Below, in pieces: positions 1 to 31,263 of a stretch of 37,363 bases of DNA. Position numbers and translations under genes: made by a program. The stretch lies in NCBI GenBank assembly GCA_021162685.1, contig JAGGYF010000035.1:1-37363 (forward strand), written 5' to 3'. Each line of letters begins with the position of its first letter. Within the stretch, counting starts at the first letter, position 1. Below the pieces are notes generated by a model. It worked only from the letters and a program-made list of their open reading frames with translations, did no database searches and was not told where the DNA came from. The DNA comes from Candidatus Iainarchaeum sp. GTDB lineage: Archaea > B1Sed10-29 > WALL01.

Positions 1-1781
1 GCGACCTCGAACAAATAGCGAACTTCTTTGAAGAACATGGCGATGAGATAAAAGACATTGATGAAGACCTGTATTACAAATTAGCGAATTATTACAACAC
101 AGAACTCGCCATATACAGATTGAACGAAATAAACAGAGGAGAAAACGTAGATGAAAATGTTGAATTCTTGGCAAATAACTATGGAGCTCTCAAAGACTCT
201 CTGGAAACACTTGGTAAGCATGATATTCTAGACGAAATGAAACGCGTTCTCAAAGAACATGGGTATGAAATTGAGGCAGAAGAGCAACCAACAGAAGAAG
301 AGGTAGAAGAGCAACCAACAGAGGAAGCAGAAGAGCAGCCAACTGAAGAGGCAGAAGAACAGCCAACAGAAGAGGAACAACCAACTGAAGAGGTAGAAGA
401 ACAACCAACAGAGGAAGCAGAAGAGCAACCAACTGAAGAGGAACAACCAACTGAAGAAGAGGTAGAAGAACAGCCAACAGAAGAGGTAGAAGAGCAACCA
501 ACTGAAGAGGCAGAAGAACAACCAACAGAGGAAGAAGCAGCAGAACGGCCACCAGCAAAACCAAAAGTAAGAAGAGTGAGGAAGAGGAGGGTAAAAAGGC
601 TATGGAAAGGGTTGGCACCAGAAGAAAAATTGAAAAGAGCAGTTCTTGGTCTCAAGAGCAATGTACGAATATCCAGTGATATTATAGAAGAAGTTTCTTC
701 CATATGCTCCACAGAACTTGACGAAATTAGCGATACACCTTCAGAAGAGGAGAGAAGGATATTAGAGGACATGCTTGATTTTGCAGTATATTCAGGAAAG
801 ATGAATGCAGAGCAGATAAATAGGATTATCTCAAAACTTGGTTTGTTAGAAAGAGAACAGAGAGGAGAAAGTGAAGCAACACAGCGTTTGGCAGGAATTC
901 GTGATGTTTTGAGGAGAAGACACCCCTCTCTCTATCGTGAGATTTTTCCAGCAACGAGGCTGACCAGAGAGGCACAGGAAAACATCCTTTCGGGGTTAGG
1001 AATATCTGCTTATTACCACGATGAGATTCCCAAAACAATGCTTGACAGATACGCAGGTAAGAAAGTAGATGAGATAGTTAGTGCTATCAGGAAGGAGTCA
1101 TTGGACAAAATGAAAGACCTGCTTGGTGAAGGACTTTCTAATAGAATGCTAGATGCACAGCAGGTAATGTTTAACATTGCTTTAGAGAAGAAAGAGATAA
1201 AGCCAGAACAACTTGCAGAGATTAAGGAAGGATTTGAAAAGATAAAAGGAAAACTTGAAGAGAGCAACTATGAGGAGTTTAAGGAATTTGTTTCATCACT
1301 CGGACCAGAACTCAGATCACTTGTAGAAACACCAAGCGAAGCGGTCAAAAACCTTAATCTTAAAATGAGAGCAAAACTGAAATCATTAGAACTTAGGGAA
1401 AAAGGAGAGTTTTATAATCCAGATGTTGTCGCGGAGAATGTAGTGAAAGGAATTTTCCCGGAAGAGAAGGTCGATATGCTTTTAGAAGCACTAGGTAATC
1501 TTAGCAAGTTTACAAATAGAAGAGGGAGTTTGGAACACTTTGCTGAGAGACTTTCTTCATCGCCAAGAATACTTGATGAGTGTATTGATTCTTTTAGGAG
1601 AATAGGTAAAGTGTTTGCTTCATTGCCAGATTATGATAAGGAGGCAAAAGATGTATATAAATCAAACTTGGATACATACTTCTCGCTGGGTGAAGACTTA
1701 GCTATTGAAAAAATAAAAGAGTTTGCGGAAAGAATAGAGAGCGAGATGAAAGGCAAAACGACAAAGAAGGGGGAGAAATGA
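1..1781 (+). CDS. Coiled-coil protein with GYEIE module and QPTEE tandem repeats (5' partial)
   Basis: The reading frame is open to the left edge (first full codon at 3), so this is the C-terminal part of a longer protein; the TTG at 120 is only an internal Leu codon. Three parts are visible. First, a ~90-residue helical module (DLEQIANFF ... LKEHGYEIE, 3-275) closely matches two modules in the giant protein encoded at 2445-14867. Second, an acidic low-complexity stretch holds 11 copies of QPTEE (about 279-540) and ends in a basic patch (KPKVRRVRKRRVKR). Third, about 390 charged, mainly helical residues with no family I recognise. No membrane segment or secretion signal is seen. The stop overlaps the next start (ATGA at 1778-1781), so the two genes are probably translationally coupled. 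Function unknown; a structural or scaffold role is inference. Confidence 0.85.
   Translation, partial: DLEQIANFFEEHGDEIKDIDEDLYYKLANYYNTELAIYRLNEINRGENVDENVEFLANNYGALKDSLETLGKHDILDEMKRVLKEHGYEIEAEEQPTEEEVEEQPTEEAEEQPTEEAEEQPTEEEQPTEEVEEQPTEEAEEQPTEEEQPTEEEVEEQPTEEVEEQPTEEAEEQPTEEEAAERPPAKPKVRRVRKRRVKRLWKGLAPEEKLKRAVLGLKSNVRISSDIIEEVSSICSTELDEISDTPSEEERRILEDMLDFAVYSGKMNAEQINRIISKLGLLEREQRGESEATQRLAGIRDVLRRRHPSLYREIFPATRLTREAQENILSGLGISAYYHDEIPKTMLDRYAGKKVDEIVSAIRKESLDKMKDLLGEGLSNRMLDAQQVMFNIALEKKEIKPEQLAEIKEGFEKIKGKLEESNYEEFKEFVSSLGPELRSLVETPSEAVKNLNLKMRAKLKSLELREKGEFYNPDVVAENVVKGIFPEEKVDMLLEALGNLSKFTNRRGSLEHFAERLSSSPRILDECIDSFRRIGKVFASLPDYDKEAKDVYKSNLDTYFSLGEDLAIEKIKEFAERIESEMKGKTTKKGEK
3..275 (+). 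repeat. GYEIE module, copy A (partial)
   Basis: This module encodes about 90 residues that recur twice in the giant gene (12357-12683 and 12684-13013). Similarity extends to DNA: the stretch around 217-275 is almost identical to 12945-13006, ending in the same codons for LKEHGYEIE. That points to recent duplication or gene conversion between the two genes. Confidence 0.85.
279..540 (+). repeat. Tandem repeat encoding 11 x QPTEE
   Basis: Units of mainly 24 nt, with 15- and 27-nt variants, encode EEQPTEE followed by A/V-E or nothing. Synonymous differences (caacca/cagcca, acagaa/actgaa) show the units are not all freshly copied. The product is a strongly acidic, Pro-containing and probably extended linker between the GYEIE module and the C-terminal helical region. 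Confidence 0.9.
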
Positions 1782-2440
1782 TCCTAAAGAAAAAGGCAAA
1801 GAGTGTAGGGTATAAGGGATTTAAGGAATTTCAGAAGCAGGTAAAAAAGCAAGAAAAGCAAGCCAAGAAGATCAAAGAATGGCACCCAATTGAAAAGCGG
1901 TTTGAGAAGTATAAGCAAAAGGTTACGACAGAGGGAAGGAAAAAGGTGAAACTTTTTGGTACAGAGGTTATCGCGAATGAGGAAGAGGCGAGGATTGTTA
2001 AGAGATACCTTGAAGCAACAAGGGCAACAGAAGCATTTGGTGAGGTAAAAAAACCAGAGGAATTAGTAGGAGAGAAGATACCAGCAAGAGTTATGCGCAG
2101 AGCGATGAGGTATGACCAAGTTCTTAGGGAAATGGAGAATATAGAAGAAGGAGAACAAATACCAAGTATGGAAAGAGTTGAGGGCAAAGAGCCAGAGGAA
2201 GAAAGGCAATCAGTTATGCCCACTGAGCCACAACGGCCCAGGGGAGAGACAGAGGAGGTTATACAACCAATGACTGAAGACACTGAGGGAATGATGGTTC
2301 CTTTGGAGACTGAAACAGTGGAAAAGAGAGTATACAAAAGAGGAGTATATGTTAGTGGAGCAGGATTTGAGATTGGTGCCATACTTCCCATAATAATTAT
2401 ACTTGTAATACTTTTCATCATACTCAACTTCATAAGGTGA
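1778..2440 (+). CDS. Tail-anchored charged protein, 220 aa
   Basis: The ATG overlaps the previous stop in ATGA. Residues 1-190 are hydrophilic and rich in Lys/Glu, with a coiled-coil-like start (KEFQKQVKKQEKQAKKIKEW), an acidic Pro/Glu-rich middle and no recognised domain. Residues ~193-219 form one very hydrophobic segment (IGAILPIIIILVILFIILNF) followed only by Arg, which is the layout of a C-tail-anchored protein with its bulk in the cytoplasm. It lies between two coiled-coil genes, and the giant gene starts 4 nt after its stop. A plausible role is membrane anchor for the neighbouring coiled-coil proteins; that is inference from context. Confidence 0.85.
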   Translation: MILKKKAKSVGYKGFKEFQKQVKKQEKQAKKIKEWHPIEKRFEKYKQKVTTEGRKKVKLFGTEVIANEEEARIVKRYLEATRATEAFGEVKKPEELVGEKIPARVMRRAMRYDQVLREMENIEEGEQIPSMERVEGKEPEEERQSVMPTEPQRPRGETEEVIQPMTEDTEGMMVPLETETVEKRVYKRGVYVSGAGFEIGAILPIIIILVILFIILNFIR

Positions 2441-2444
2441 GGGA

Positions 2445-5400
2445 TTGCCACTGTTCAGAAAGAAGAGAAGGCCGTTTATATGGTTGAAACCTGGCGAAAG
2501 AAAAGCATACAAAAGAGTAGTGGATAGAAGACCGTTTCCAATAGGTATGAGGAAGCCCTATGAGCAGGTAAGGGGGCTGTTTGAAGAGGCAAGAGAGAGA
2601 GTACCAGAAAAAAGGCCGGAGGAGAAACCAAAGGGCATAGACATTGAGCGATTGAAAAGATTAACAGGGCAACCACCTAAAGAACAAGAGAGAGTACGAA
2701 TTGACATTGGTAAGTTGAAAGAGGCAGCAGAGCGACCAGAGGAGAAACCAAAGGGCATAGACATTGAGCGATTGAAAGCATTGGCAGAGCGACCCATAGA
2801 AATAGAGGTTCCAGAGGAAAGAGAGCTAACAGAAAGAGAGTTTATAGATACGCTCCGTTTTTACGTTGAGCACGGAAAACCAATCTCTGGATGGCTGAAA
2901 GCAAAGATAAGGGAAGGAGGGTATGACCTAGACAGATTAATGGAAGCAGCAGGCGTTCCACCAGAGGAAAAACCAGCGGCGCTTCCTCTACCAAAACCTG
3001 TACCTGTGAAACGTATTACACCATCTGAGGAGTTACCAGAAGAGAAGATTAGGGAGATTAGAGAAACAGAGCTAAGCAAAAATACCGTATACAATATATT
3101 TGAGCCATATGATATGAAGGTACTTTACCTCAACTTGATTTTGAATAAACCTAAGGAGATGCTACAAAATAGTCAATTTCTGCGTGATGAGATACGTGCA
3201 TTAGCTCAGAATGGGGAGTTACATGAAGAAAAGGCAAACAAGATTCTTAGCGAATTTGATACATTCAAAGAGCAGATTATTCCTATAGTGGAAGAGCACG
3301 GAAAGATACTTGTAGATGCAGAGAAAAAGCAAGAGAAGATACTTTCAAAGGTTGATGAAATAGAAACAAGTGTCAAAGAGCACGAAAGAACAATCAGTGA
3401 GTTAGAAAAAAGGCTTGGACAGACAAATCCAAATGAGATGAAAGAGCTCGGAGATGGATTAGTTGCTGCGATAGGAGATATGAGGAAGCAAAAGGAAGAA
3501 CTTGAAGCATTGACAAGGGAACTTAAAGAGAAGATTAAAGGCGACACCGTAGAGAGAGAAACAGAGGAAGCACGCAGAAAGCTTGAGGAGAAGATTACAC
3601 GTTTGGAAGGAAATTATGTATTACTAGAAGAGGCAGTTGACAAGCATCTAGATATGCTCTCAGAGAGTATGGAGAAACAGAGGATGCAGTTGGAACAGAG
3701 TGCCTCGCTCCTCAACGAAATGGTTAAGAAAGGAACATACTCATTAGAGGATGTACAAAAGGTTTCTGGTGTAGTAAAACAACTAAACGAAACAGAGAGA
3801 GAAAAAGAGGATAAGGAGAATTACGTTAAGCAGTATTCAGATGTTATAAAGTCAATGAGAAAAGGGGACAAGCTTAGCGAACTAGAGACACATCTAAATG
3901 GGCTTTCCGAGACTATTAAGAATACATCTATCCAACTAGAGGAAGCAGTAAACAGGATAATAGAATCAACCAAGCCACCGTTAACTCTTGCTAGGAGAAC
4001 AGCAGAACAGATTGGAAACGTATTAACTGGTTTGGAAGAGGATATAAAACCAGAAAGGAGAGTAATGTTGAAAACATTAGAACATTCTCTTGGGGAGTAT
4101 GACACGAGAATAGAGAATGCCGAGAGAGCAATTGAGCATTTAAATGAGTTAAATAAGTCATTTGATGTTGAGGATGAACTAAAAGATGCAAAAAAAATCA
4201 TTGAAAATTTGAGGGATTCTAGAAATAAAGCAGAAGAGACATTACGCAATATGAAGATGACATACGAAAGACTAGATGAGAAGAAGAAGCTGCTCTCTCC
4301 TGAAGACATACAAGAGATTGAGAGGGGACTTAATGCTCCAATAGACCATGTAAAGCCAGATGTGGCCATAGGGGCAATAGAGGATTATTTGAATAAGAAA
4401 CAAAGAGAGGGCATAAAAACAATTGAAAGGGTTGTAACAGATATCCGCACAAAAGGCGTCCCAGAGATTTCTGTTAGTATAGATGAACTAACAAAAGCTG
4501 TTGAGACATTAAAGAAAGCAGGTGTTCCTGGAGATGAGGTCAATGAACATCTTGAGAGGGTTAAGGGAGAACTTTTATCAAGAATGCAGAGGGACACAGA
4601 AGAACTTAAAAAACAGGTGGATTCAAGGACAATGAAGATTGAGGAAAAAATTTCGGAGATAGAAAGGGACCCAAGTGCGATTGATGAAGTAATCAAAATG
4701 AGGGAAGAAATAGAGGGATTTAAGGACAGGATAGATGAGATGGTTGCACTTCAGAAAGCAGCAGAAGAAAAAGGTGTTGAAGTTAAGGTTTCTCTTGATG
4801 AGATAAAACAAAGCGTTGAAGAGCTACCAAATGAAATTAATCAGAAGATAAAGGAGGCTGTGGAAAAACAGATAGTGCTGATGACTAAGCAGCATGAGGA
4901 AACAGTGAATAAAATAGATGAAGAGATGCAGAGACTTAGATTGGATCTTGGTGTAGCAAAAACATCTGAAGACATTGCTGAAATCAATTCAAGATTAAAT
5001 GAAATTCAAACCAAATACAGCGAGCAACTGAGAAAGATTAGCGAAACCATTGAAAAACTTAAAACTGAACCGACCGAAGAAGCCGTTGGAAGAACGTTAG
5101 AAGAATTAAACAAAAAGCAAGAGGACATTGAAAGCTCTATTAATGCGTTAAGGGCAGAGGTCTCCGAAACCCATTCAAAACTTTCTGAAATAAGTGATAT
5201 TGTTAGGAGGATTGAGAGCACTTTATCCGATTTACCAAAGTATGAATTACAGGAACTTCCTTCCAAGATGGATGAAATAAATGCTCAAATAAAGCTTCTA
5301 GCAGAGAAAGGCGTATCAGAAGAGAAGATCAATGAATTGAGAAGAAATCTAATTTCAGAGATGAGCAGGCGATTTGAGGAACAGACAAATAGGTTTGCTA

Positions 5401-8400
5401 GCACAGAGGAAAAGATTACTAGGAATATTGAGGAGATAAATGAAACAATTAAAAATCTAAGTGAAAGAATTTCAGAAGAAGGCGTTTCAGAGCAGATAAA
5501 CAAGCTTGTTGAGGCAAGGAGAGCCCTCTCAGAGGAATTGCAGAACTTGAGAAGAGCAGTAGACATACTAAAAGAGGTCTCGGGTAAAGAAATTGACCTT
5601 GGCGGTGTGGACGAACTAGTTAGGCAACATGAGGCAATAAAAGACGGCATTTCTGATTTGGTCAAGAAGCAAGAAGAATTGGGAAGAAAGATTGAGGAGA
5701 ATGAAACTAATACAGAACAAGCAATACAAGATGCAATGGATAAACTCTCTAGTGAACATAACACAATTATCTCTAGACTTACAGATATTGATGAAAGACT
5801 GGATGAAAATCTCACCAATATAAAATCGGCAGTTGAAAGGGAGGAGACGCTAGATACAGCAATGATTGAGAACATCAATAAGTCAGCAGAGCAGATTAAT
5901 AGGTTGAGGTATGAATTGGAAACAGTAAGAAAATCAATTGAAAATATCAGAGCAATTGGAGCCGACACAACAGAGCTTGAGAGAAAACAGAACGAAATTT
6001 TGAGAAGGATTGATGAGTATAAGGAGAGGCTTGAAGAAAAGGTCACTAAAGGATTCGAAGAGATACAAGATTTGGTTAATCAGAAAATTAATGATGTAAA
6101 TGCAAACATGGATGAAAAATATGAAAAATTTAAGAACCTTATCCTACAACTTCCATCAAACCCACAACTGATTGATGAAATAAGAGGAGCAAGGGACGAT
6201 ATAATAAAGACACGCAACGAATTAACTACGAAGTTAGATGTTATACAAAGAACAATTGACGATTTAAAACGAAATCCTCACTTCAAGCCGCCAGACACTT
6301 CTGGAATAGGGGAGAGATTACGTAACATTGAGGATTTGATTAGAAATGAAGCGGATAATGTTGTTAGCAGTGTTGTAGAAGAACATAAAAAGACAAGAGA
6401 GGACTTAGAAAGAAGAGCAGAAGAACTAGACAAGAAACTAGAGGATGCAATCAATAGACTAAAAAAACCTGGGATAACAGATGAAGAAAGGGAAGAGCTG
6501 GTCAGGGAAATAAAAAAGATTGCAGAAGATAAGGACAAAGTATATAAGCAATTATCTGAGTTATCAGAACAACTGAGCAATGTGAGTGCAGGACTTAGTG
6601 GCTTGGGCGCGAAGGTAGATGCGTTAAAAGATGAGCATAAAAAGTTGTCAGATGAGTTATCCCAGATCTCTAGAGCTACTACTGAAATCACCTCAATGCT
6701 TTCCAGATTAAGCACGAGAGTTGCAGAAAAAGAAGACATAGATGTGGTGGTCAGAAGGTTGGAGGAGCAAGGCGAAGAATTAACAGGACTTAGAGAGATG
6801 CTTGAAACATTTATCAAACAAGCAGAAGGAGGAATGCGGGAAGCATATATGGAAGACATCTTGAGGGAAGATGAGAGATGGAGAAAGGAGGTAGAGGAAC
6901 TGGAGAAGAAAGAGCGAGAATATGAAGAAACAGGTAAGGAACTGGATGAATTGAAAAAGGCCATTGAAGAATGGAAAAGAGAGGAAGTTGGTAGGCCTCC
7001 TGTGAGTGATGAGGAGATTAGAAAGGAAGTTGAGAAATTAGAGGAGCATAAGAAAGAGTTAGAAGAGATGAGCAAAGAGTTAGAAACGTTTACTTATGGA
7101 AGGGTCCGGTCATTAGTTGCTGAGGGGTATCCCGAGGAAGCAACTTCAGAACTAGAAACACTTGCAAGCCAGGGAAGATACAATGAATTTTTGGATAAGT
7201 ATGAAGAACTTGTTAGGACAGCTATAACTGCAAAGGGTATAATAGATAGGGTAATTGAATCCGTTCCAGAACATTTGAGGGGGAGAGCAATTGATACCAT
7301 AACCAAGCCAGAGGCAATGGCAACAATGGCGCCAGTTGAGATTGAAGACCTGGTAAAGAAGCAGGTTGAGTTGTTTTTAAGGGACGAATTAAACAAATTC
7401 TATGAAAAGAACAACGTATCAAGGGATTTGCAGACCTATCTTGATGCTCTGGTATCTGCTGGAACCATTACTCCGAAGGATGTATTAGAGCAGAGCGATA
7501 TTTACAAAAGGATTGTGAAGGATTTTGAGGAAGTGAAAAGGAAAAGGGAGTTGCCAGAGGAAGTTGTTAAAGCAGTTGGAAAGGAGAGGGTTGAGGTTCC
7601 AGAAGAACATATAATACCTGTTACGAACGTTCCGAAGATAAACGAAATAAAATCGGATGCAAGGCAGGTTCTTCCGAACGAAGTTGTTGACTCTGTGCCA
7701 GATTATGAAGTAAATCAAATGCTTGATAAAGAGAATGTTCCAAAGCGTATACAAGAGCAACTGAAGAGAATAGAAGAGAAAGTAGATAAAATAGAAGGGC
7801 TTTTGCGCGAAAAGAAGGAGGAGTTAGAGAAGGAATATCCAGATCCAGCAAGAATTGCCGAAATAAACAAAGCTATAGAAAAGGCAGAGGAAGACATAGA
7901 AAAGTCAAAATCAACTATTGTGATTGGAGCGTTTATGGCACCAGAGAAGAAAGAGGAGATAAAGAAAGCACTTGATGACGCTAAGGATATTGAGAGGAGA
8001 TATAAACGCCTTGAAAGGGTCAAATCACCGTATGACCTATTTGGGGCAGAGATTCTTGAGACTATGCCAAAAACCCTCTCAAAAGAGGACGTAGAGGAAA
8101 TAGTAAATCCTGAAGGCATTGAAGAAAGGATAGCATCACTTGAAACCCAGGTAAGAGACCTGAAAGACAGGATAATGGAGCGTTCCAAAGAACCAGAAAA
8201 GATTGATGAGTTGATTGAATCAATTGAGGAATTCAAGAAAGCATTGACAAAACTTGCATTAGAATCAAAAGTTATAGGAAGAAATGAAGAGCAAGTTAAG
8301 AAAATTATGGATACGATTAATGGACTTAAGTCGGAGATAGAAGATGTTAAGGCAATAACTCCTTCTATCACCTCGGATCAAATTAATAAGACAGCAGAGA

Positions 8401-11400
8401 ACTTGGCTTCTGGAGCGATTACACCAGAGGATGCAGAAAATAGACTAAATTACTTCATGGATATTATCAAAAAGCAGGGATTGGTTCCAGAATCTTCAGA
8501 GTACAGGCAATTAATTGATTCTGTGAACAGGTTGCGTGAAGCACTGGAAAAAACAAAACTGAATAATGCTCTAAAAATACTTGAAGAACCCAGCATTGCA
8601 GAGGAGTTATTATGGGTCCAATCACTAAGTCCAGACATGGAGGGAGCGGGAGAAGTATTCAAGAGGGTGCACGAAGCATTGTTTATAGGCGATGTTGAGA
8701 GGATAACACAAGCAGTTGAAGAAGCAAAACGCATACAACCAGATCTAGAGAGGTCAGTTAAAGATGCAACAGTTGTTGAAGATGAAATCTCAAAGGAAAT
8801 AGAATCATTCATACCCACAAAAGCAAGTGATGAGGATATTGTCCGTGTCAGAAGGGAAATGGAAAGAACAAATGAGAAAATAGAGGAATTGGGACTCCTT
8901 TCAGAAAAGCCAGTAGTAAAAGAAATGATTGACAGATTGCAGACCAAAATATCTATACTAAATGAATTGATTGAAGAAGCAGAAAGAAGAAAACTGGGGG
9001 AAGTTGCAAAATCAAAGCCAATAGAAGAAGTGCCAGAGGAAATACAAAAGAAATTGAACAAACTTGATAAAGAATGGGAATCAGTTGAAGAAAAAGTGGA
9101 TGCATTATATGATAGGCTTGCCGAGAAAGTTGCAGAACTGGAGACAAAATGGCAGTCCATTGACAATTACTATAACAACCTTATAACAATGCTTGAAGAA
9201 GCCATTAAGAAGATGCCAGATGCAGAAGATACACTAAGAAACAAAATAGATGAATTGAAGAAACAAAGAGAAGAATTCAGAGAAACAATTTCAAATCAAG
9301 CAGGAAGCATAATCTCTGAAACAGCTGCGCCCGTTGATGATGTTTATGAAATAGACGAGTTGATAACATACAACATAGAGAAAGGCAATGAGGAGGAAGT
9401 AAAGTCATTGGTAGATCGGCTTGGGAAAAAACAAGCTGAAGCATACAAGAAGATGGAAGAACTTACGGAGAAGGCTGAAGCAAAGCTCTCAGAACTTTCA
9501 GAGAAACTCAAGGAGCATGAAGCGTTTAGATATATGGAAGAGGTTTTACCAGTACTTACAAAGGATGAGAGGGATAGATTCTTTGAGAAGGCTGCATTGC
9601 AGAGGGGGAAGTATCTTGTGAAAGAACCGGAAAAGACACCATTTGATTCAACGCCCGAGAGCATAGATAGCTGGCTGAGTCATTGGAGAGTATATCTATC
9701 CCAGAAGAGGCTTACTGAAGAAGAGCTTAAAGAGATGGTAGAGAGACGTAAACAAAAAGTAAAGGAGGATGTGAAAAGAGGGGTAGTGCGATTTGAGATG
9801 AAAAAGAAAAAAGAACCTGTTAAAAGACTTGTGAAATCAGAACCTCTGTTTGAAGGACTCTACGCGAAGTTGAAAAGCTTTATGAATCCTGAGGATTTCA
9901 AGGCACTTGAAAATAGAGTGAATGAAAAAGCAAGGAGTGAGCCCGAAAAGACTACTGAAATTTTTGAGTCAGAAGTCAGAGAGGAGCTAAATATTCCAGA
10001 AGAGAAATTCATTATTGATGGCGTTGATGAGAAAGCAGAGGAAGTAAAAGAGAAAAGAAAGGAAGAGTTATCAAAGAAAGAACCAGCAAGAATACTACAA
10101 GAAACAATAAAAGATGCGGAAAAGGTTGTTGAGACAGAAGGTATTGATGTAACGCAGGAAGAGATGAAAACATATTTAGAGATGCTTCCGATATCAATAC
10201 TTAAAGGCATGGAAGAAAGCAGAGAAACTGCAGTAGACGGATTAAAGAGGAGTATTGAGAAACAAGGTTTGCCTTCAGAAAAAGCAGAAGAGATTGTCAA
10301 AATTGTAGAAACAAGGATTAGGGATGCAAAACCAGCTTTTGACAAACAACTTGGAAAGGATGTGACAGAGGAGAAGAAAAGGATTATAAATAAGATTCCA
10401 GAAGCATTGCATGAAACGATAAAGAAAAGGACAGGTGTTGAAAACCTTTTAGAACTTGATAAAGACTTCCTCCAGGAAAGATTAGATGCCATAGAATTCA
10501 TTCAAAACACGTTCTTGCCTAGGTTCCCCGAAGCAGTAAAGTCTTTGAAAGAAAAGGTAAAAGTTCCTTTGGCATTGGTTTCTTTGGATGTTTTAAAGAA
10601 GGAATATGAAAAGGCAGAAAAGAAACGTGAGAAAGAAAATGAAGAGTTTTTGGATAGGCTTTCAGGCTGGGCTCAAGGTCTTCCTCCTGAAGTCTATTTA
10701 ACACCTGAAAAGAAGCCAACGATAGATGAAGCAATGTCAATTGCAAAACGGGCATTGAAGAAGATAGGGGAAGAATGGAAACTAAGTGAGGATACCTACA
10801 AAGCAGTTGAAAAAGGCGTTTCTGAATTTGTTGGTGCGCATGCTGGCAAATATAACACTACTAAGGAGTTGTATGATGCAATTATGACACATGCAGAGAT
10901 TATAAAGAGCAACTACTTGTGGGATTGGTTTGAGGAGTTTAGGGCATGGGCGATGAAACCCATTGAGAAACCAGTTGAAGTAAAAAAACCAGAGGTGAAA
11001 AAAGGCATATTAAGTCCAGAAGATGAAGCGTTCCTCCAGGGAATTCTTGATTGGGGAAAAGTGGTAGAAAAGCCTTTAGAAGCAACAGAATTCATGGTGA
11101 ATACTGCACTAACGTATTACATGAGTTCGCCGTTTAAGGAAGCCACTGATAAACTTCTAAGACAAGTTGGGATGTACAGAAATGAGAGGATGAGAAGGTC
11201 GCTAAAAGAAAAGGTGTTTAAGCAACTGTTTGAGAGAGCAACACAGTTTGAAAAAGCAAAACGCCTTTTTGAGGGCATATCCAGAGACAAACTTATAGAT
11301 GCTACTAGGTATATAGAGACAGCAAATAGAATGGTTGAAACAGCAATAAAGGAGAACAGAATAGGGGACGCAATAGATGTACTTGTGGACGAACTTAAGA

Positions 11401-14400
11401 GGTTCCCAGAGCATAGAACTGAAGAGGAAAGAAAGGCCATTAATGACCTCTTATCCAAATTAAGTGAGAAGAAGACAACGAACATCAAGGAAAAGACTGA
11501 AGAATGGATTGAACGTGTTGACAATGCATTTATTGAGGCACAAGGAGGGGAGCCAGAGCTAGAGCCGCCACCAAAAGAAGTGATAGATTACATCAAATCA
11601 AAGATGGAGGAAGGAAGGGATATAGAGCAAGCAATAGATGAATTAGAAGCAGAGACAGGCATTTCAATACCTGTTAGGGAGATAATAAGAGCAACCATTG
11701 AAAGAGAAGCATTTGAGATGCCAGAAGAGGATATTGAATCCCTTTACGGTAAACTAAATACGCTCTCTTCTCTTGGTATGCATGAAGAATCAGCAGAAGT
11801 CGCTAAAAAGATCATTGATCAAAGTCCAGGCGATTTTCTAATCCGTAGGATAAGAGTGGAAGAACTGTATAATGCAGGTAAGGTAAATGAGGCAATGAAA
11901 GAACTTGAGCAATACATAAAAGAAGCAGAGGAGAGGAATCCACCCTCTGTTAGCATGCTAGAAAATCTAAAAAGAAAGATCATAAAGGATACTAAGGAAT
12001 ACAAACAGATGAAAAGGTGGATTGAGGACCTACGCAAGACTGCAAGTATTCATGATTTGGGATATAATGCACTTATGAAGTTGTGGGAGGAAGGAAAGCT
12101 AACAAGAAAGGACGTAGAGAAAACGACAAAGCTATATGATCTATGGCGTAATATTGGAATGAATGAATATGTTCCTCCAGATGATAGAACACCACTGCAA
12201 AATGAGATTGCAGATGTAATAGAAGCCATAGGCCGAGGTGAAGAAGTAGATGATAGAATCAGAAACATAAAAGAGGAAGTGGAGGAAGTACATAGAAAAC
12301 AGGAGGAAGAAGCAAAAGAAGCAGAGGAATTTCTTGAAGAGATTTTAGGGGAAGCAACAGCAGAGACACTGAAAGAAGAGGCGGAGGAGCTTCTACAAAC
12401 AAACGACCTTGAACAAATAGCGAACTTCTTTGAAAAACATGGCGATGAAATAGAAGAGAGTGCTCCAGAGGTCTATAACAAACTTGAAAACTACTATAAA
12501 ACAAAACTTGCCATAGATGCATTGAACGAAATAAACAGAGGAGAAAACGTAGATAAAAACATCCTACTTTTAACATACCGCTACGAAGATTTCAAAGACT
12601 CCCTTGAAACACTTGGCAGGCATGATATTCTAGACGAAATGGAACGTGTTCTCAAAGAGAGAGGATATGAAATTGAGAAACCAACAGCAGAGACACTAAA
12701 AGAACAGGTGGATAGAGTCCTACAAACAAAAGACACTGAAAAAATAGGGTTCTTCCTTAGAGTGCATGGCGATGAAATAAAAAAGATTGATAAGGACCTT
12801 TACGACAGACTTTCACGCCTTCAGCTCAACACAAAACTTGCCATGGGCATATTGGATGAAATAAACAGAGGAGAAAACGTAGATGAAAACGTTAAGTATC
12901 TGGCAGAGCATTACGAAGGCATCAAAGACTCCCTTGAAACACTTGGCAAACATGATATTCTAGACGAAATGAAACGCGTTCTCAAAGAACATGGGTATGA
13001 AATTGAGAAACCAACTGAGGCAGAGTTGATACGTGTTGCGAGTATACATGATATTGCGAAAGAGCCAGAAAAATATGAATTCAGGGAGGACAGAAAGTTT
13101 ATCGTAAGGAAGAAGGGCACAAAAGCAGTGCAGGGTTACAAGTTGCATATATCCGCAAATGAGGAGAACTATGAGGAAGTATTCAAGACTGTAGCCCCAA
13201 TTGTTGAAAAATATGATATAGGATATAAGTTCGTGAAACCAGAGGAATTTGTAAACGCAAGAGAAACAGAGAACATCTATGGGAAGTTTATAACAATATA
13301 CACAGAGAACCCAGAACAAGCAGCAGCGATTGCAAAGGAAGTTGATGAAGCACTAGCAGAAAAAGATATAGCCACAGGCAGGAAGATAAAAGGGGACAAA
13401 CCATTACCAAACGGAAAATCTGGCCTAGTGTTCTACAGATATGGTGTCTATGATATGTCAATGCCTGGCTATGTTCATCCAGATGGATTAAAACAATACC
13501 AAGAAAGCGTCAGAAAATCTAAGGAAATGGGCCTTATACCACTATCACTAAGAAGTTGGCTAGATTTTGAGAGGAGGCAAGGAAGAAATTGGATAATTCC
13601 TGAGGAAAAGGATAGGAACGGTGTGCCAACAAAGGCAATTCCAGGTTTCCTTGAAAAGGATGAGCTAGAGGAAATGCTTACGAGAAAACCAGTTACACTT
13701 GATAGAGAGCATATAGCGCTCGCTGAAAAACTTGGATTAGATGCGGATAAGCTTAACGAAGAGCAGAAGGAAGCACTGGTCTATGCACAAAAAGCACTGG
13801 AGCTTGCTGAGGAAAACGGAGGAACAGAATGGAAAGAGGACAGATTGAGATTATTGACAGATTATAAGGATAGGGTAGAGAAAAAAGCCTACGAACTTTT
13901 GCTAAATGAATTGCAGATGAAAGCAGATGATTGGTGGGTAGGGAAAAGGCAATTATCTGTTGAGAGTGATGCACAAAGTCTTATAAGGGCATATCTCAAA
14001 GATGGTAAAGTGCCTGATGTAGATGAGATAACAAAAATCATCTATAGAGGCAGACCAAAGAAATGGCTTGAGAAAAAAGGGATGACGCAAGAAAAAATTA
14101 GAGAAATCGTTGAAGAGAGAGTTAAAGCAGAGGAAAAAAACTTAGAGGACGCTGAGAAGAGAGAAGGCGTTGTAAAGGTATTTGTTTATGGAACACTAGA
14201 GAGGCCCGGTTTCCTTGAGGAGATGGGAATCAACATAGATAATGTATCTTTCGTACGTGCTGTAGTACCTGGATTAAAGGCAACGTATCATGGTGGCCTT
14301 ATGAATGATAAATGGGCAAATCCTGTGAAGGCAGATGGAGAGGTATTGAGAGGGACAATCCTCTACATGAGACCAGAGGACTTTGAGAAGATGAAGAAGA

Positions 14401-14867
14401 ACGAGAGATTCTACGAATTTGGAGGTCAGGATGAGGTTGCTGAGTTAGAGAATGTAACTGCACTTGGAAGAAAGATTCCAGGTGTTAAGATATTCTATAA
14501 GAAGGATTATTATGAAATGAGCCCAGAGGAACTTGCGAAAGAAGATATAAAGCAGATGAAAAGTTATCTAGAATGGGGAAGGCGCATTATTAGCGAAGTC
14601 GATAATGACACTATTAAGAAGCTCGCAGAAATGGATCTCGGATCCTTTATAGGCATGGATGCAAGAGATATGTATAAACGTTTGAGGTTAGAATGCGAAA
14701 AGCGCGGGATTGATTTTAGAAAGATAGATGCATTTGACCCCTACTCAACAAGAGAACGCTTCTTTGAGTTGTGTTTGGCTGCAAAGGAGAAGATGGGGGA
14801 AGACGTGAGTAGGTATTTAGAAGAAGAAAAGGCAGTAGAAAAGGAAATTAATAAAAAAGAAGCCTGA
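2445..14867 (+). CDS. Giant coiled-coil protein (4,140 aa) with phosphothreonine-lyase-like and GGCT-like domains
   Basis: The start is TTG at 2445, with GGTGAG overlapping the previous stop as ribosome-binding site. Order: residues 1-~165, basic, with three degenerate GIDIERLK repeats; ~190-1550, long Glu/Lys-rich coiled coil; ~1550-3090, further helical segments; ~3095-3175, TPR-like hairpins; ~3305-3523, two GYEIE modules; ~3540-3670, a domain resembling OspF/SpvC/HopA1/LanKC lyases; ~3908-4030, a gamma-glutamylcyclotransferase/AIG2-like domain (FVYGTL, then KNERFY). In the lyase-like domain, K3566 and H3568 (YKLHIS), K3595 (YKFVK), R3606, Y3619 (ITIYT) and R3665 (FYRYG) match, in order, the catalytic and phosphate-binding residues known in SpvC (K104, H106, K136, R148, Y158, R213). 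There is no signal peptide or membrane segment. A zinc-ribbon sequence continues in the +1 frame past the stop. Domain calls are from motif memory, without a search. Confidence 0.85.
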   Translation: MPLFRKKRRPFIWLKPGERKAYKRVVDRRPFPIGMRKPYEQVRGLFEEARERVPEKRPEEKPKGIDIERLKRLTGQPPKEQERVRIDIGKLKEAAERPEEKPKGIDIERLKALAERPIEIEVPEERELTEREFIDTLRFYVEHGKPISGWLKAKIREGGYDLDRLMEAAGVPPEEKPAALPLPKPVPVKRITPSEELPEEKIREIRETELSKNTVYNIFEPYDMKVLYLNLILNKPKEMLQNSQFLRDEIRALAQNGELHEEKANKILSEFDTFKEQIIPIVEEHGKILVDAEKKQEKILSKVDEIETSVKEHERTISELEKRLGQTNPNEMKELGDGLVAAIGDMRKQKEELEALTRELKEKIKGDTVERETEEARRKLEEKITRLEGNYVLLEEAVDKHLDMLSESMEKQRMQLEQSASLLNEMVKKGTYSLEDVQKVSGVVKQLNETEREKEDKENYVKQYSDVIKSMRKGDKLSELETHLNGLSETIKNTSIQLEEAVNRIIESTKPPLTLARRTAEQIGNVLTGLEEDIKPERRVMLKTLEHSLGEYDTRIENAERAIEHLNELNKSFDVEDELKDAKKIIENLRDSRNKAEETLRNMKMTYERLDEKKKLLSPEDIQEIERGLNAPIDHVKPDVAIGAIEDYLNKKQREGIKTIERVVTDIRTKGVPEISVSIDELTKAVETLKKAGVPGDEVNEHLERVKGELLSRMQRDTEELKKQVDSRTMKIEEKISEIERDPSAIDEVIKMREEIEGFKDRIDEMVALQKAAEEKGVEVKVSLDEIKQSVEELPNEINQKIKEAVEKQIVLMTKQHEETVNKIDEEMQRLRLDLGVAKTSEDIAEINSRLNEIQTKYSEQLRKISETIEKLKTEPTEEAVGRTLEELNKKQEDIESSINALRAEVSETHSKLSEISDIVRRIESTLSDLPKYELQELPSKMDEINAQIKLLAEKGVSEEKINELRRNLISEMSRRFEEQTNRFASTEEKITRNIEEINETIKNLSERISEEGVSEQINKLVEARRALSEELQNLRRAVDILKEVSGKEIDLGGVDELVRQHEAIKDGISDLVKKQEELGRKIEENETNTEQAIQDAMDKLSSEHNTIISRLTDIDERLDENLTNIKSAVEREETLDTAMIENINKSAEQINRLRYELETVRKSIENIRAIGADTTELERKQNEILRRIDEYKERLEEKVTKGFEEIQDLVNQKINDVNANMDEKYEKFKNLILQLPSNPQLIDEIRGARDDIIKTRNELTTKLDVIQRTIDDLKRNPHFKPPDTSGIGERLRNIEDLIRNEADNVVSSVVEEHKKTREDLERRAEELDKKLEDAINRLKKPGITDEEREELVREIKKIAEDKDKVYKQLSELSEQLSNVSAGLSGLGAKVDALKDEHKKLSDELSQISRATTEITSMLSRLSTRVAEKEDIDVVVRRLEEQGEELTGLREMLETFIKQAEGGMREAYMEDILREDERWRKEVEELEKKEREYEETGKELDELKKAIEEWKREEVGRPPVSDEEIRKEVEKLEEHKKELEEMSKELETFTYGRVRSLVAEGYPEEATSELETLASQGRYNEFLDKYEELVRTAITAKGIIDRVIESVPEHLRGRAIDTITKPEAMATMAPVEIEDLVKKQVELFLRDELNKFYEKNNVSRDLQTYLDALVSAGTITPKDVLEQSDIYKRIVKDFEEVKRKRELPEEVVKAVGKERVEVPEEHIIPVTNVPKINEIKSDARQVLPNEVVDSVPDYEVNQMLDKENVPKRIQEQLKRIEEKVDKIEGLLREKKEELEKEYPDPARIAEINKAIEKAEEDIEKSKSTIVIGAFMAPEKKEEIKKALDDAKDIERRYKRLERVKSPYDLFGAEILETMPKTLSKEDVEEIVNPEGIEERIASLETQVRDLKDRIMERSKEPEKIDELIESIEEFKKALTKLALESKVIGRNEEQVKKIMDTINGLKSEIEDVKAITPSITSDQINKTAENLASGAITPEDAENRLNYFMDIIKKQGLVPESSEYRQLIDSVNRLREALEKTKLNNALKILEEPSIAEELLWVQSLSPDMEGAGEVFKRVHEALFIGDVERITQAVEEAKRIQPDLERSVKDATVVEDEISKEIESFIPTKASDEDIVRVRREMERTNEKIEELGLLSEKPVVKEMIDRLQTKISILNELIEEAERRKLGEVAKSKPIEEVPEEIQKKLNKLDKEWESVEEKVDALYDRLAEKVAELETKWQSIDNYYNNLITMLEEAIKKMPDAEDTLRNKIDELKKQREEFRETISNQAGSIISETAAPVDDVYEIDELITYNIEKGNEEEVKSLVDRLGKKQAEAYKKMEELTEKAEAKLSELSEKLKEHEAFRYMEEVLPVLTKDERDRFFEKAALQRGKYLVKEPEKTPFDSTPESIDSWLSHWRVYLSQKRLTEEELKEMVERRKQKVKEDVKRGVVRFEMKKKKEPVKRLVKSEPLFEGLYAKLKSFMNPEDFKALENRVNEKARSEPEKTTEIFESEVREELNIPEEKFIIDGVDEKAEEVKEKRKEELSKKEPARILQETIKDAEKVVETEGIDVTQEEMKTYLEMLPISILKGMEESRETAVDGLKRSIEKQGLPSEKAEEIVKIVETRIRDAKPAFDKQLGKDVTEEKKRIINKIPEALHETIKKRTGVENLLELDKDFLQERLDAIEFIQNTFLPRFPEAVKSLKEKVKVPLALVSLDVLKKEYEKAEKKREKENEEFLDRLSGWAQGLPPEVYLTPEKKPTIDEAMSIAKRALKKIGEEWKLSEDTYKAVEKGVSEFVGAHAGKYNTTKELYDAIMTHAEIIKSNYLWDWFEEFRAWAMKPIEKPVEVKKPEVKKGILSPEDEAFLQGILDWGKVVEKPLEATEFMVNTALTYYMSSPFKEATDKLLRQVGMYRNERMRRSLKEKVFKQLFERATQFEKAKRLFEGISRDKLIDATRYIETANRMVETAIKENRIGDAIDVLVDELKRFPEHRTEEERKAINDLLSKLSEKKTTNIKEKTEEWIERVDNAFIEAQGGEPELEPPPKEVIDYIKSKMEEGRDIEQAIDELEAETGISIPVREIIRATIEREAFEMPEEDIESLYGKLNTLSSLGMHEESAEVAKKIIDQSPGDFLIRRIRVEELYNAGKVNEAMKELEQYIKEAEERNPPSVSMLENLKRKIIKDTKEYKQMKRWIEDLRKTASIHDLGYNALMKLWEEGKLTRKDVEKTTKLYDLWRNIGMNEYVPPDDRTPLQNEIADVIEAIGRGEEVDDRIRNIKEEVEEVHRKQEEEAKEAEEFLEEILGEATAETLKEEAEELLQTNDLEQIANFFEKHGDEIEESAPEVYNKLENYYKTKLAIDALNEINRGENVDKNILLLTYRYEDFKDSLETLGRHDILDEMERVLKERGYEIEKPTAETLKEQVDRVLQTKDTEKIGFFLRVHGDEIKKIDKDLYDRLSRLQLNTKLAMGILDEINRGENVDENVKYLAEHYEGIKDSLETLGKHDILDEMKRVLKEHGYEIEKPTEAELIRVASIHDIAKEPEKYEFREDRKFIVRKKGTKAVQGYKLHISANEENYEEVFKTVAPIVEKYDIGYKFVKPEEFVNARETENIYGKFITIYTENPEQAAAIAKEVDEALAEKDIATGRKIKGDKPLPNGKSGLVFYRYGVYDMSMPGYVHPDGLKQYQESVRKSKEMGLIPLSLRSWLDFERRQGRNWIIPEEKDRNGVPTKAIPGFLEKDELEEMLTRKPVTLDREHIALAEKLGLDADKLNEEQKEALVYAQKALELAEENGGTEWKEDRLRLLTDYKDRVEKKAYELLLNELQMKADDWWVGKRQLSVESDAQSLIRAYLKDGKVPDVDEITKIIYRGRPKKWLEKKGMTQEKIREIVEERVKAEEKNLEDAEKREGVVKVFVYGTLERPGFLEEMGINIDNVSFVRAVVPGLKATYHGGLMNDKWANPVKADGEVLRGTILYMRPEDFEKMKKNERFYEFGGQDEVAELENVTALGRKIPGVKIFYKKDYYEMSPEELAKEDIKQMKSYLEWGRRIISEVDNDTIKKLAEMDLGSFIGMDARDMYKRLRLECEKRGIDFRKIDAFDPYSTRERFFELCLAAKEKMGEDVSRYLEEEKAVEKEINKKEA
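2619..2777 (+). repeat. Direct repeat at the 5' end of the giant gene
   Basis: An identical ~39-nt stretch occurs at 2619-2657 and 2739-2777, exactly 120 nt (40 codons) apart, encoding EEKPKGIDIERLK. A third, diverged copy (RVRIDIGKLK) lies between them. It is a short internal duplication in the basic N-terminal region. Confidence 0.85.
12357..12683 (+). repeat. GYEIE module, copy B
   Basis: 109 codons, from TAETLKEEAEELL to GYEIEKP. It is directly followed by copy C and closely similar to copy A at the window start (for example DLEQIANFF and NEINRGENVD in both). Predicted all-helical, of unknown function. Confidence 0.85.
12684..13013 (+). repeat. GYEIE module, copy C
   Basis: 110 codons, from TAETLKEQVDRVL to GYEIEKP. 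Its 3' third is nearly identical in DNA to copy A, more so than to adjacent copy B (LKEHGYEIE against LKERGYEIE), suggesting exchange between the two genes. It leads directly into the lyase-like domain. Confidence 0.85.
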
Positions 14868-15093
14868 GAGAACAAAAGATACATGCCCATCATGTGGCGG
14901 AGAGATTGAACTAGAGGATGCAATATGCCCCCACTGTGGTGCGGAACTTTATGAGTGCCCAGTATGTGGAGGGATATTAACAGAAGATGCTACTGTGTGC
15001 CCTCACTGTGGCAAACTATTTGATGAATTTGATGAAGAAGAGGAGCAACCAAAAGAGAAAGAAAAGAAAAGTTTTAGAGATCACTCCAAATAA
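14857..15093 (+). CDS. Out-of-frame double zinc ribbon, probable C-terminal end of the giant protein
   Basis: In the +1 frame relative to the giant gene, codons from the A6 run (14853-14858) to the TAA at 15091 encode KKPERTKDTCPSC ... SFRDHSK. Four CxxC motifs (CPSC, CPHC, CPVC, CPHC) form two treble-clef or rubredoxin-like zinc ribbons of the DZR type, followed by an acidic/basic tail. The frame has no ATG, GTG or TTG and no ribosome-binding site between an upstream TAG and the first CxxC, so it is unlikely to be a separate gene. Reading joins naturally as EINKK-KPERTKDTCPSC if one A of the A6 run is skipped. Explanations are a sequencing indel, a real mutation, transcript slippage or +1 frameshifting. 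The last 13 nt overlap the convergent LeuRS gene. Confidence 0.65.
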   Translation, partial: KKPERTKDTCPSCGGEIELEDAICPHCGAELYECPVCGGILTEDATVCPHCGKLFDEFDEEEEQPKEKEKKSFRDHSK

Positions 15094-17904: not shown

Positions 17905-18054
17905 TCACCTAAGTGCTCCAATCTCTTCTTTTTTTTGTTTTATATCCTTGATAAGTTTTTTTAGTGAGAAAGGAACATGTTCTATTGGCACTTCTAATAG
18001 TTCAGCAGTTTCTATTAATATCTTCTCATAGTGTTTTAGTTCATCAAATTTCAT
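17905..18054 (-). CDS. 49-aa protein resembling the AlaRS linker
   Basis: A small ORF between AlaRS and LeuRS. Its ATG overlaps the AlaRS stop (ATGA at 18051-18054), and its TGA lies in the LeuRS ribosome-binding site, so the three genes look translationally coupled. The sequence (AELLEVPIEHVPFSLKKL then a Lys-rich helix) aligns by eye with the AlaRS segment AAKILNVPLEEVPQKTKEL plus its following helix. This is the coiled-coil linker after the editing domain. It may be a duplicated fragment that now stands alone, perhaps pairing with AlaRS. That role is inference; the reading frame and the similarity are visible. Confidence 0.75.
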   Translation of the reverse strand: MKFDELKHYEKILIETAELLEVPIEHVPFSLKKLIKDIKQKKEEIGALR

Positions 18055-21357: not shown

Positions 21358-22059
21358 CTATGCAAAGAACTCCTCTACTTTGACCTCCAATCCTTTCTCT
21401 GTAAGAGAAAAGTTGATCCACTTGAGTGGGTGTCTTGTATCAAGCATCCTCACTACCCTAAGCCTTCTTTGCCCATCTTTTAATACCATTTCAATTGTAC
21501 CGTCGCATACGTAATCAAGTGTAGAAACAACCCTTTCATTGTGTAAACCTTCTTCTAACACAACCATTGCGATAGAATTGTTTGTTTTGATTGTTCCACT
21601 AAATACTTGGAGGAATTTGAACACGCTCTTTTCATCCCCATACATAAGGAAATCTGATATAGAGTCTATGATTACCCGTGATGGAAGTTTTGTCTTTTTT
21701 AATCCCTCTTTTACAAGTTCGTTCAACTCATTTAGCTCAAGAAGGGAGTGTAACCTTGCAACTCCTTCTTCGTTTTTCAGTTCTCTTCTGGGAGTCCTCC
21801 AGGAATAGCAATCTATGAAAAACACATTTTTCAATATCTCTTTGTTTCCACCACAATAGTCTACTAACACCTTTTTTATATGCGAAACAGGCTCTCCCGT
21901 AACGATGTAGATGGCAAATTCCCTGTTTTCTAAGCCTTTACATATGAATTGCTTACAGAATGTTGTTTTTCCAGAACCTGGTGGGCCTCTTAAAAGCAGT
22001 ACTGCTTTTGATGGAAACCCTCCTCCTAATAATTTGTCAATTCCGGGCACTCCTGACAC
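21358..22059 (-). CDS. KaiC/RadA-superfamily ATPase (KaiC-like, single domain)
   Basis: A RecA-fold ATPase of 233 aa. The N-terminus has the family's GVPGIDKLLGGGFP lead-in, followed by Walker A GPPGSGKT (residues ~25-32) and Walker B SRVIIDSISDFL. The usual EE dyad after Walker A is reduced to GE (IVTGEPVSH), so ATP hydrolysis may be weak or altered. The GTG at 22059 is the only standard start near the family's N-terminus, but the strong AAAGGAGGGA motif lies about 20 bases further upstream, so an unusual start a few codons earlier is possible. It follows a 7TM sensor and precedes two 3-TM proteins, suggesting a membrane-linked signalling role. Confidence 0.85.
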   Translation of the reverse strand: MSGVPGIDKLLGGGFPSKAVLLLRGPPGSGKTTFCKQFICKGLENREFAIYIVTGEPVSHIKKVLVDYCGGNKEILKNVFFIDCYSWRTPRRELKNEEGVARLHSLLELNELNELVKEGLKKTKLPSRVIIDSISDFLMYGDEKSVFKFLQVFSGTIKTNNSIAMVVLEEGLHNERVVSTLDYVCDGTIEMVLKDGQRRLRVVRMLDTRHPLKWINFSLTEKGLEVKVEEFFA

Positions 22060-25422: not shown

Positions 25423-25432
25423 TGGTGGTGAT

Positions 25433-25807
25433 ATGGGCAACATATTGATAGTGGAAGATGAGCCTGATATGGCAAGAACTATTCAAATTATGTTGGAGAG
25501 TGAAGGTTATTCAACAGAAATAGCAGAGAATGTAGACAAAGCAATGAACATACTCAAAACAAAAGGTGCGGACCTTGTTCTGTTAGATATTATTCTGCCA
25601 CAAGTGCATGGAGATGTTTTACTCAAAAAGATGCAGAAGTCAGAGAAACTAAAGAAAGTACCAGTGATTGTTGTTACAGTTGTTGACCCTGTAACAGGCA
25701 TTAAAGAGGATATGAAAGAGATAAAAAAAGATGTAGGTTTCATATCCAAACCATTCAAAAAAGAACATCTTTTGAGGGAAGTAAAACAAAGATTAAAGGA
25801 CAACTAA
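25433..25807 (+). CDS. Single-domain response regulator (CheY-like receiver), 124 aa
   Basis: A receiver domain without an output domain. The acidic pair is E8/D9, the phosphoacceptor D52 (LLDIILP), with T82 and K106 (SKPF) completing the active site. The ATG at 25433 follows GGTGGTGAT. It is the probable partner of the upstream kinase. Lacking a DNA-binding domain, it must act by protein contact, as single-domain receivers commonly do in Archaea. Confidence 0.95.
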   Translation: MGNILIVEDEPDMARTIQIMLESEGYSTEIAENVDKAMNILKTKGADLVLLDIILPQVHGDVLLKKMQKSEKLKKVPVIVVTVVDPVTGIKEDMKEIKKDVGFISKPFKKEHLLREVKQRLKDN

Positions 25808-29096: not shown

Positions 29097-29354
29097 GGTA
29101 GTGGGCCATAGTCTGCCTTCTGTTTTAAGCGGCATTCGACTTAGCGTCCCTACGGACTTGCACGCTTTGAGGCCATGCGAGCACGTTCCACCTCCACACC
29201 ACCGCTCAGTTCTTCACATCATTGCTGTAGGCAGTGTAGGAGTATCGTTTCTGCTCTCGCACAGGGATTTGCACCCCGTTAAGGCCACCTTTTCAGGCGC
29301 GTGGGCAGAACTTCCTCAGGAGATTATCTCTCCCGTAGCCGCTCACCCACTACC
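29097..29354 (-). ncRNA. rnpB: RNase P RNA, archaeal
   Basis: On the minus strand the ends pair perfectly as helix P1 (GGTAGTGGG at 29346-29354 with CCCACTACC at 29097-29105). Conserved blocks are present in order: CTGAGGAAGTTC (the GAGGAAAGTC region), AGCAGAAACGATAC, and ACAGAAGGCAGACTATGG near the 3' end (the ACAGAA...GGC element that pairs back in P4). At ~258 nt it is shorter than many archaeal type A RNAs. It is the catalytic RNA for tRNA 5' maturation. A TATA box lies ~50 bases upstream. Confidence 0.9.
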
Positions 29355-31230: not shown

Positions 31231-31263
31231 TTTAATCACCGCTCCTACTCTTGGGAAAAGCAA

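What the first reader, a model, noticed from the sequence alone, without database searches (positions are those of the whole stretch)
1..15093. Three-gene coiled-coil / tail-anchor / giant effector-like locus
A coiled-coil protein, a tail-anchored protein and a 4,140-aa coiled-coil protein with TPR-like, lyase-like, GGCT-like and zinc-ribbon parts lie head to tail with 4-nt overlap or spacing. GYEIE modules are shared between the first and third. Shared modules plus a dedicated membrane anchor suggest one assembled structure, for example a membrane-tethered filament or scaffold carrying enzymatic heads. I know of no described system with this layout.
Basis: inference. Interest (0 to 1): 0.8.

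Follow-up and report, generated by a model that had tools for sequence, protein, structure and literature searches.

The report
Giant membrane-tethered scaffold operon in archaeon
A tiny-genome archaeon carries a row of three genes for a huge, mostly helical protein with enzyme-like parts at one end, a partner sharing its building blocks, and a small membrane anchor; a relative keeps a similar row in the same place with almost unrecognisable sequences, which suggests an undescribed and fast-changing structure inside the cell.

Summary
The window is one contig of a Diapherotrites-clade (DPANN) archaeon. The three-gene row is real: a 5'-truncated gene (the contig starts inside it), a 220-aa tail-anchored protein and a 4,140-aa protein. 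GYEIE modules are predicted six-helix bundles, not coiled coil. The "lyase-like" part is firmly a LanL/LanKC-type phospho-Ser/Thr lyase domain (6 of 7 compared active-site residues kept), without kinase or cyclase. The GGCT-like fold is fairly well supported. The zinc ribbons lie in another reading frame.

Sequence searches find no orthologues of the three proteins. By position, however, a same-family relative has a 3,801-aa giant, a 155-aa tail-anchored protein and two more large proteins in the same order, also convergent with LeuRS-AlaRS; only the membrane tail is recognisably similar. Another genome keeps a tail-anchored gene convergent with LeuRS, and others have charged, Cys-free ORFs there. 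The enzyme-like ends seem to differ (a JAMM-like motif instead of lyase/GGCT).

Best reading: a lineage-specific, fast-evolving, membrane-tethered cytosolic scaffold with exchangeable enzymatic ends. Assembly, activity and role are inferred, not shown. It is not a lanthipeptide synthetase, SPEARE protein or phage tail gene.

The parts
1..1781 (+). Gene 1 (P0001, at least 592 aa), 5'-truncated by the contig start
   Evidence: open frame from base 3; the window is all of contig G000:C5
3..275 (+). GYEIE module 1 (91 aa left of about 108)
   Evidence: 70% identical to modules 2 and 3; HMM match E=9.9e-52
273..529 (+). Acidic/proline repeat (EEQPTEE...) spacer in gene 1
   Evidence: tandem repeat, period 24, 11 copies
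1778..2440 (+). Gene 2 (P0002, 220 aa), tail-anchored protein, ATGA overlap with gene 1
2378..2434 (+). C-terminal transmembrane anchor of P0002
   Evidence: hydropathy 3.27; best two matches among 117 hydrophobic segments are the positional counterparts in G003 and G007
2445..14867 (+). Gene 3 (P0003, 4,140 aa), giant helical protein, TTG start 4 nt after gene 2
3165..7124 (+). Coiled-coil-like rod, about aa 241-1560, strongest heptad signal aa 1081-1440
   Evidence: periodicity analysis
11727..11954 (+). Weak TPR-like stretch (aa 3095-3170)
   Evidence: TPR_19 E=0.02, under cut-off
12351..12677 (+). GYEIE module 2 (aa 3303-3411), six-helix bundle
12681..13007 (+). GYEIE module 3 (aa 3413-3521), six-helix bundle
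13077..13544 (+). LanL/LanKC-type phospho-Ser/Thr lyase domain (aa 3545-3700)
   Evidence: Pfam RamC_N 7e-18; NCBIfam LanL 4.6e-20; ThurKC 8sao 1.9e-6; active-site mapping; fold Z 9.9
14166..14534 (+). GGCT-like domain (aa 3908-4030; YGTL at 3915, Glu 3987)
   Evidence: GGACT E=0.096, under cut-off; human GGCT 3cry Z 8.2 and many other GGCT-fold chains
14839..15093 (+). Two zinc ribbons in the +1 frame relative to gene 3, no standard start codon
15081..17921 (-). Leucyl-tRNA synthetase, convergent neighbour that marks the position in relatives
18051..20765 (-). Alanyl-tRNA synthetase, second positional marker

Best explanation
The three genes form one translationally coupled operon for a cytosolic, membrane-tethered scaffold. 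The small tail-anchored protein sits in the cell membrane with its body in the cytosol. Gene 1 and the giant share six-helix GYEIE modules, which probably let them bind the same partner or each other. The giant contributes a rod of about 1,300 residues and, at its C-terminal end, a phospho-Ser/Thr lyase-like and a GGCT-like domain that would modify proteins brought to the scaffold. The locus is lineage-specific, keeps its position beside LeuRS-AlaRS, evolves very fast, and appears to change its enzymatic end between relatives. Shown by computation: operon spacing, anchor, shared modules, lyase homology with kept active-site residues, GGCT-like fold, a similar layout in one relative. Inferred: assembly, location, catalysis, purpose.
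For: Overlap and spacing. Single C-terminal anchor in P0002 and no TM in P0001/P0003. Shared modules folding as helical bundles. Lyase. GGCT. In G003 (same family) a 3,801-aa ORF, a 155-aa tail-anchored protein, an 839-aa and a 623-aa protein lie in the same order and end convergent with LeuRS-AlaRS. There too the giant and the 839-aa protein share a helical repeat type, HEAT. G007 has a tail-anchored gene convergent with LeuRS. P0002's tail ranks G003's and G007's tails first and second of 117 hydrophobic segments, scores 67 and 48 against 37 for the next.
Against: No significant sequence similarity of P0001, P0003 or the P0002 body to the G003 proteins, so common descent rests on position, layout and a short hydrophobic tail. 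Only one relative shows the full row; contigs end inside or near the locus in others. The resemblance of the GYEIE module to a stretch of G003's 839-aa protein is not significant. No complex could be predicted. Lyase and GGCT parts of the model have low pLDDT.
Confidence: 0.45

Rival explanations
1. Attachment-organelle-like cytoskeleton: the proteins build a polar internal core that shapes the small cell or holds it to a host cell, functionally like the HMW/P65/P200 core of Mycoplasma pneumoniae. This is a more specific form of the best explanation.
For: Giant rod, acidic/proline-rich spacer, membrane link, very fast evolution, small genome of 1.11 Mb. Mycoplasma core proteins combine coiled coil, acidic-proline-rich and disordered regions (PMC11940719).
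Against: No homology seen; no surface adhesin gene in the row; host dependence of Diapherotrites is not established (an early genome was read as possibly autonomous, PMC6642349).
Confidence: 0.2
2. Effector/polymorphic-toxin-like system: the giant is delivered into or acts on other cells, with an exchangeable enzymatic C-terminus (lyase/GGCT here, JAMM-like in G003).
For: Enzyme-like parts sit at the C-terminal end of the last gene(s) and differ between relatives; the lyase superfamily includes injected effectors (PMC10604976).
Against: No signal peptide or TM in the giant; no recognised immunity or secretion gene in the row; the anchor points to retention; JAMM is a motif only.
Confidence: 0.15
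3. RiPP maturation: the lyase dehydrates phosphorylated Ser/Thr of a peptide, as in class III/IV lanthipeptide synthetases.
For: Lyase domain is of LanL/LanKC type with 6 of 7 compared active-site residues.
Against: No kinase or LanC domain in P0003; no LanC in any of 19 genomes of the phylum; no kinase over the Pkinase cut-off in the genome.
Confidence: 0.05
4. Three unrelated orphan genes that happen to be neighbours; the G003 likeness is coincidence at a variable site beside LeuRS.
For: No sequence-level orthologues; other relatives have different genes beside LeuRS.
Against: Start/stop overlap, shared modules found only in genes 1 and 3, same order and anchor in G003, tail ranking.
Confidence: 0.15

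Closest known systems
Lyase domain of class III/IV lanthipeptide synthetases (LanKC/LanL; ThurKC, CuvL, SalKC)
   Same: Sequence family RamC_N, fold (Z 9.9 to ThurKC), K-x-H, Lys, Lys, Asp, Arg of the active site
   Different: No kinase or cyclase; sits at the end of a 4,140-aa scaffold in an archaeon; class III/IV clusters were reported only from bacteria (PMC7268733) and LanL-like lyases as bacterial only (PMC4159009)
Gamma-glutamylcyclotransferase superfamily (GGCT, GGACT/AIG2, ChaC)
   Same: YGTL motif, Glu at the expected place, GGCT-like predicted fold (3cry Z 8.2)
   Different: Sequence score under the Pfam cut-off; fused behind a lyase domain; catalysis unknown
Giant surface proteins of nanohaloarchaea (SPEARE, PMC6642349, PMC10266531)
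   Same: Multi-thousand-residue protein in a DPANN archaeon, enzyme-like part at one end
   Different: SPEAREs have a signal peptide, Ig-like/adhesion repeats, their own TM and a VirB4-like ATPase; none seen here, and the anchor is a separate protein
Mycoplasma pneumoniae attachment-organelle core proteins (HMW2, P65, P200)
   Same: Long coiled coil, acidic-proline-rich spacer, membrane-linked, small-genome organism
   Different: Analogy only, no homology seen; enzyme domains are not part of that core as described

Membership tests
Phospho-Ser/Thr lyase (LanL/LanKC-SpvC superfamily) | Sequence family and fold of the lyase domain | tested here: met
   RamC_N 7e-18, score 65 bits against cut-off 27; ThurKC Z 9.9 over 119 residues, SpvC Z 6.3, on a stretch of modest pLDDT
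Phospho-Ser/Thr lyase (LanL/LanKC-SpvC superfamily) | Active-site residues K65, H67, K94, K117, D152, R163 of ThurKC (PMC10604976) | tested here: met
   All six identical at aa 3566, 3568, 3595, 3614, 3651, 3665; K108 is Arg 3606; R191 lies outside the alignment
Phospho-Ser/Thr lyase (LanL/LanKC-SpvC superfamily) | Beta-elimination activity | not testable with these tools
   needs an assay
Class III/IV lanthipeptide synthetase | Central kinase domain in the same protein | tested here: not met
   no kinase match in P0003
Class III/IV lanthipeptide synthetase | LanC cyclase domain | tested here: not met
   none in P0003 nor in 19 genomes; the control search found one in a known genome
Class III/IV lanthipeptide synthetase | Ser/Thr/Cys-rich precursor peptide gene | not tested
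   -
GGCT superfamily | Fold | tested here: inconclusive
   many GGCT-fold chains among the best matches (3cry Z 8.2, 2qik 7.7, 1vkb 7.2), but low model confidence and a failed stand-alone model
GGCT superfamily | Sequence family score | tested here: inconclusive
   GGACT 13.7 bits against cut-off 22.8, aligned from the first strand with YGTL
SPEARE-type giant surface protein | Signal peptide and own transmembrane segment | tested here: not met
   no hydrophobic segment in P0003
SPEARE-type giant surface protein | Ig-like/adhesion repeats and VirB4-like ATPase | tested here: not met
   no such Pfam match in P0003
Phage tail tape-measure protein | Phage structural genes around it | tested here: not met
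   neighbours are LeuRS, AlaRS and other cellular genes; PHROG matches lie in the coiled-coil part only
Mycoplasma attachment-organelle core | Homology to HMW/P65/P200 proteins | not tested
   no direct comparison made; no Pfam match to such a family appeared

The most novel reading that the evidence does not exclude
A previously undescribed class of archaeal intracellular machine: a membrane-tethered giant scaffold, kept at a fixed chromosomal place in Diapherotrites while its sequence turns over almost completely and its enzymatic end is exchanged (phospholyase plus GGCT-like in one genus, isopeptidase-like in another).
Probability: 0.3. Interest if true: 0.8.

Novelty: new variant of a known kind. 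Interest (0 to 1): 0.6.

Why it matters
Giant proteins of small-genome archaea described so far (in the papers read here) sit on the cell surface. A cytosolic, separately anchored giant with a lanthipeptide-type phospholyase domain would point to an internal scaffold in DPANN cells and to protein dehydration chemistry in archaea outside peptide antibiotics. The locus also suggests that a system can be conserved by place and layout where sequence search sees nothing.

Tried and rejected
Viral contigs searched with P0002, the lyase-GGCT part, the lyase alignment and the module alignment: no relatives. Archaea-wide sample of 394 genomes with the lyase-GGCT part: only a separate lyase-domain protein in G002 (L010 = RS_17_2). 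P0002, gene 1 C-terminal part and 3,000 aa of the giant in relatives: nothing else. A tail-anchor profile found only its own three members; the next hit (G000:C42) lies among pilin-like genes. PADLOC (LmuB, ZorA) and PHROG (tape measure) matches of P0003 lie in the coiled-coil part and are taken as composition effects. Weak Pfam matches of P0001 (VMAP-M1, poxvirus Bcl-2-like) are under their cut-offs and were not followed. A likeness seen by eye between the GYEIE module and G003's 839-aa protein (LxxHGYE) is not significant. The JAMM reading of G003's 623-aa protein rests on one HxHPx7SxxD motif; Pfam and PDB searches gave nothing and no relative was found in 297 genomes. The stand-alone GGCT fold failed (pLDDT 39).

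Full report
OBSERVATION. The window is the whole contig G000:C5 of an archaeal genome of 1.11 Mb in 45 contigs, 98% complete. Its rRNA genes are archaeal, and a same-family genome in the library is titled "Candidatus Diapherotrites archaeon isolate RS_17_2", so the organism belongs to the Diapherotrites (DPANN) clade. On the + strand three ORFs run head to tail: 3-1781 (open at the contig start), 1778-2440 and 2445-14867. Genes 1 and 2 overlap as ATGA behind a purine-rich stretch, and gene 3 starts with TTG four bases after gene 2, which suggests coupled translation. Because base 1 lies inside a repeated module, gene 1 is cut, and its true size is unknown.

PARTS. P0002 has one strong hydrophobic segment at its very end; P0001 and P0003 have none. 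The GYEIE module occurs once (cut) in gene 1 and twice in gene 3, about 70% identical and was found nowhere else in the genome. Nucleotide identity between copies over their last 52 codons is 81-87% with few synonymous changes, so the copies are fairly recent or homogenised. AlphaFold gives each module in gene 3 six helices at pLDDT mostly 70-91: it is not generic coiled coil. Gene 1 also has an acidic/proline tandem repeat. In gene 3 a heptad signal is strong at aa 1081-1440 and patchy over about 241-1560; the rest is charged and looks helical. A TPR-like stretch is weak.

LYASE DOMAIN. aa 3545-3700 match Pfam RamC_N (7e-18), NCBIfam LanL and LanKC models over their lyase part and ThurKC in the PDB. 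Of seven ThurKC residues studied by mutation (PMC10604976) that fall in the alignment, six are identical (K, H, K, K, D, R) and K108 is Arg. The predicted fold matches ThurKC at Z 9.9 and SpvC at 6.3. The protein has no kinase or cyclase, and LanC is absent from all 19 genomes of the phylum that were searched. The genome's two weak kinase-like matches are under the Pkinase cut-off. A 46%-identical lyase domain sits in a separate 451-aa ORF of G002. Published surveys place class III/IV clusters and LanL-like lyases in bacteria.

GGCT-LIKE DOMAIN AND ZINC RIBBONS. From aa 3910 the sequence VKVFVYGTL... resembles GGCT proteins; the Pfam score is below cut-off, but many GGCT-fold chains are among the best structure matches (human GGCT Z 8.2). 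A Glu at 3987 stands where the family's catalytic Glu is expected (from my knowledge of the family). Model confidence there is low, and the domain alone did not fold. The two zinc ribbons are in the +1 frame after an A6 run, with no standard start codon; whether they are joined to the giant by slippage, appear split because of an assembly error, or are a separate peptide cannot be told.

RELATIVES. Sequence searches with each protein gave no orthologue. I therefore used LeuRS as a positional marker and read its neighbours in relatives. G003 (same family, other genus) has, ending convergent with LeuRS-AlaRS: a 3,801-aa ORF, 19 nt on a 155-aa protein with a C-terminal anchor, one base on an 839-aa protein, then a 623-aa protein. 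HEAT repeats occur both in the giant and in the 839-aa protein, paralleling the shared modules here. G007 has a 156-aa tail-anchored gene convergent with LeuRS near its contig end. In G002 and G004 contigs start inside a charged ORF (at least 1,574 and 402 aa) directly beside LeuRS, there upstream of it on the same strand. G005, G008 and G012 have charged, Cys-free ORFs of 390-467 aa convergent with LeuRS. Other relatives have ordinary genes there.

IS THE LIKENESS MORE THAN CHANCE? Giant and body sequences show none that is significant. The membrane tail does: against 117 hydrophobic segments from these loci, P0002's tail scores best with G003's (67) and then G007's (48), the next being 37; these are exactly the two positional counterparts. 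Tail segments are short and hydrophobic, so this is supporting, not conclusive, evidence.

HOW IT PROBABLY WORKS (inference). The anchor holds the assembly at the inner membrane face. Shared modules bind a common partner or each other. The rod gives reach; about 1,300 residues would span roughly 0.2 micrometres if fully extended as coiled coil. The C-terminal end presents a phospholyase-like and a GGCT-like domain to client proteins. In G003 the last protein has a JAMM-like HKHPx7SxxD motif instead (motif only), hinting that the enzymatic end is exchangeable.

KNOWN SYSTEMS. It is not a lanthipeptide synthetase (no kinase, no cyclase). It is not a SPEARE protein (no signal peptide, adhesion repeats, own TM or VirB4 ATPase; compare with 13, 50). 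It is not a tape-measure protein (neighbours). The nearest analogy is the internal core of the Mycoplasma attachment organelle (coiled coil plus acidic-proline-rich proteins), without homology.

VERDICT. A real operon with an unusual, partly conserved layout and one firmly identified enzyme domain in an unexpected setting. Function remains inferred.

Noticed in passing
L040:5709-7580 (G003:C28:17708-19579): 623-aa protein with a perfect JAMM-type HKHPx7SxxD motif at residue 166 and a degenerate second HMHP; no Pfam or PDB match, no relative in 297 genomes.
   Followed up: partly
L010:9146-10501 (G002): Separate lyase-domain ORF, 46% identical to the giant's lyase, preceded by repeats of the kind KPKVEWDK.
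   Followed up: partly
L039:224-1321 (G017): 365-aa tail-anchored protein with 54% charged residues and no Cys, 7 kb from LeuRS; may belong to the same kind.
   Followed up: no
L029:8365-9099 and L030:7748-8539 (G005, G008): Two similar-looking 244/263-aa proteins upstream of charged ORFs convergent with LeuRS: a possible second version of the locus in family f2.
   Followed up: no
window 30469-31263 (-): ORF with a LAGLIDADG-like LAYLAGALRDG motif starting at the 3' end of the 23S rRNA gene (31220-34026): possible homing endonuclease or rRNA intron remnant.
   Followed up: no
window 22802-25807 (+): PAS sensor, histidine kinase and response-regulator genes in a row, with KaiC/RadA-like ATPases nearby (21358-22059, 26639-27331).
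   Followed up: no
window 29097-29354 (-): Archaeal RNase P RNA near the rRNA operon (16S, tRNA-Ala, 23S).
   Followed up: no
G000, G002, G004 contig ends: Contigs of three same-family genomes end inside the giant/charged ORFs beside LeuRS, as expected if such genes hold repeats that break assembly.
   Followed up: partly
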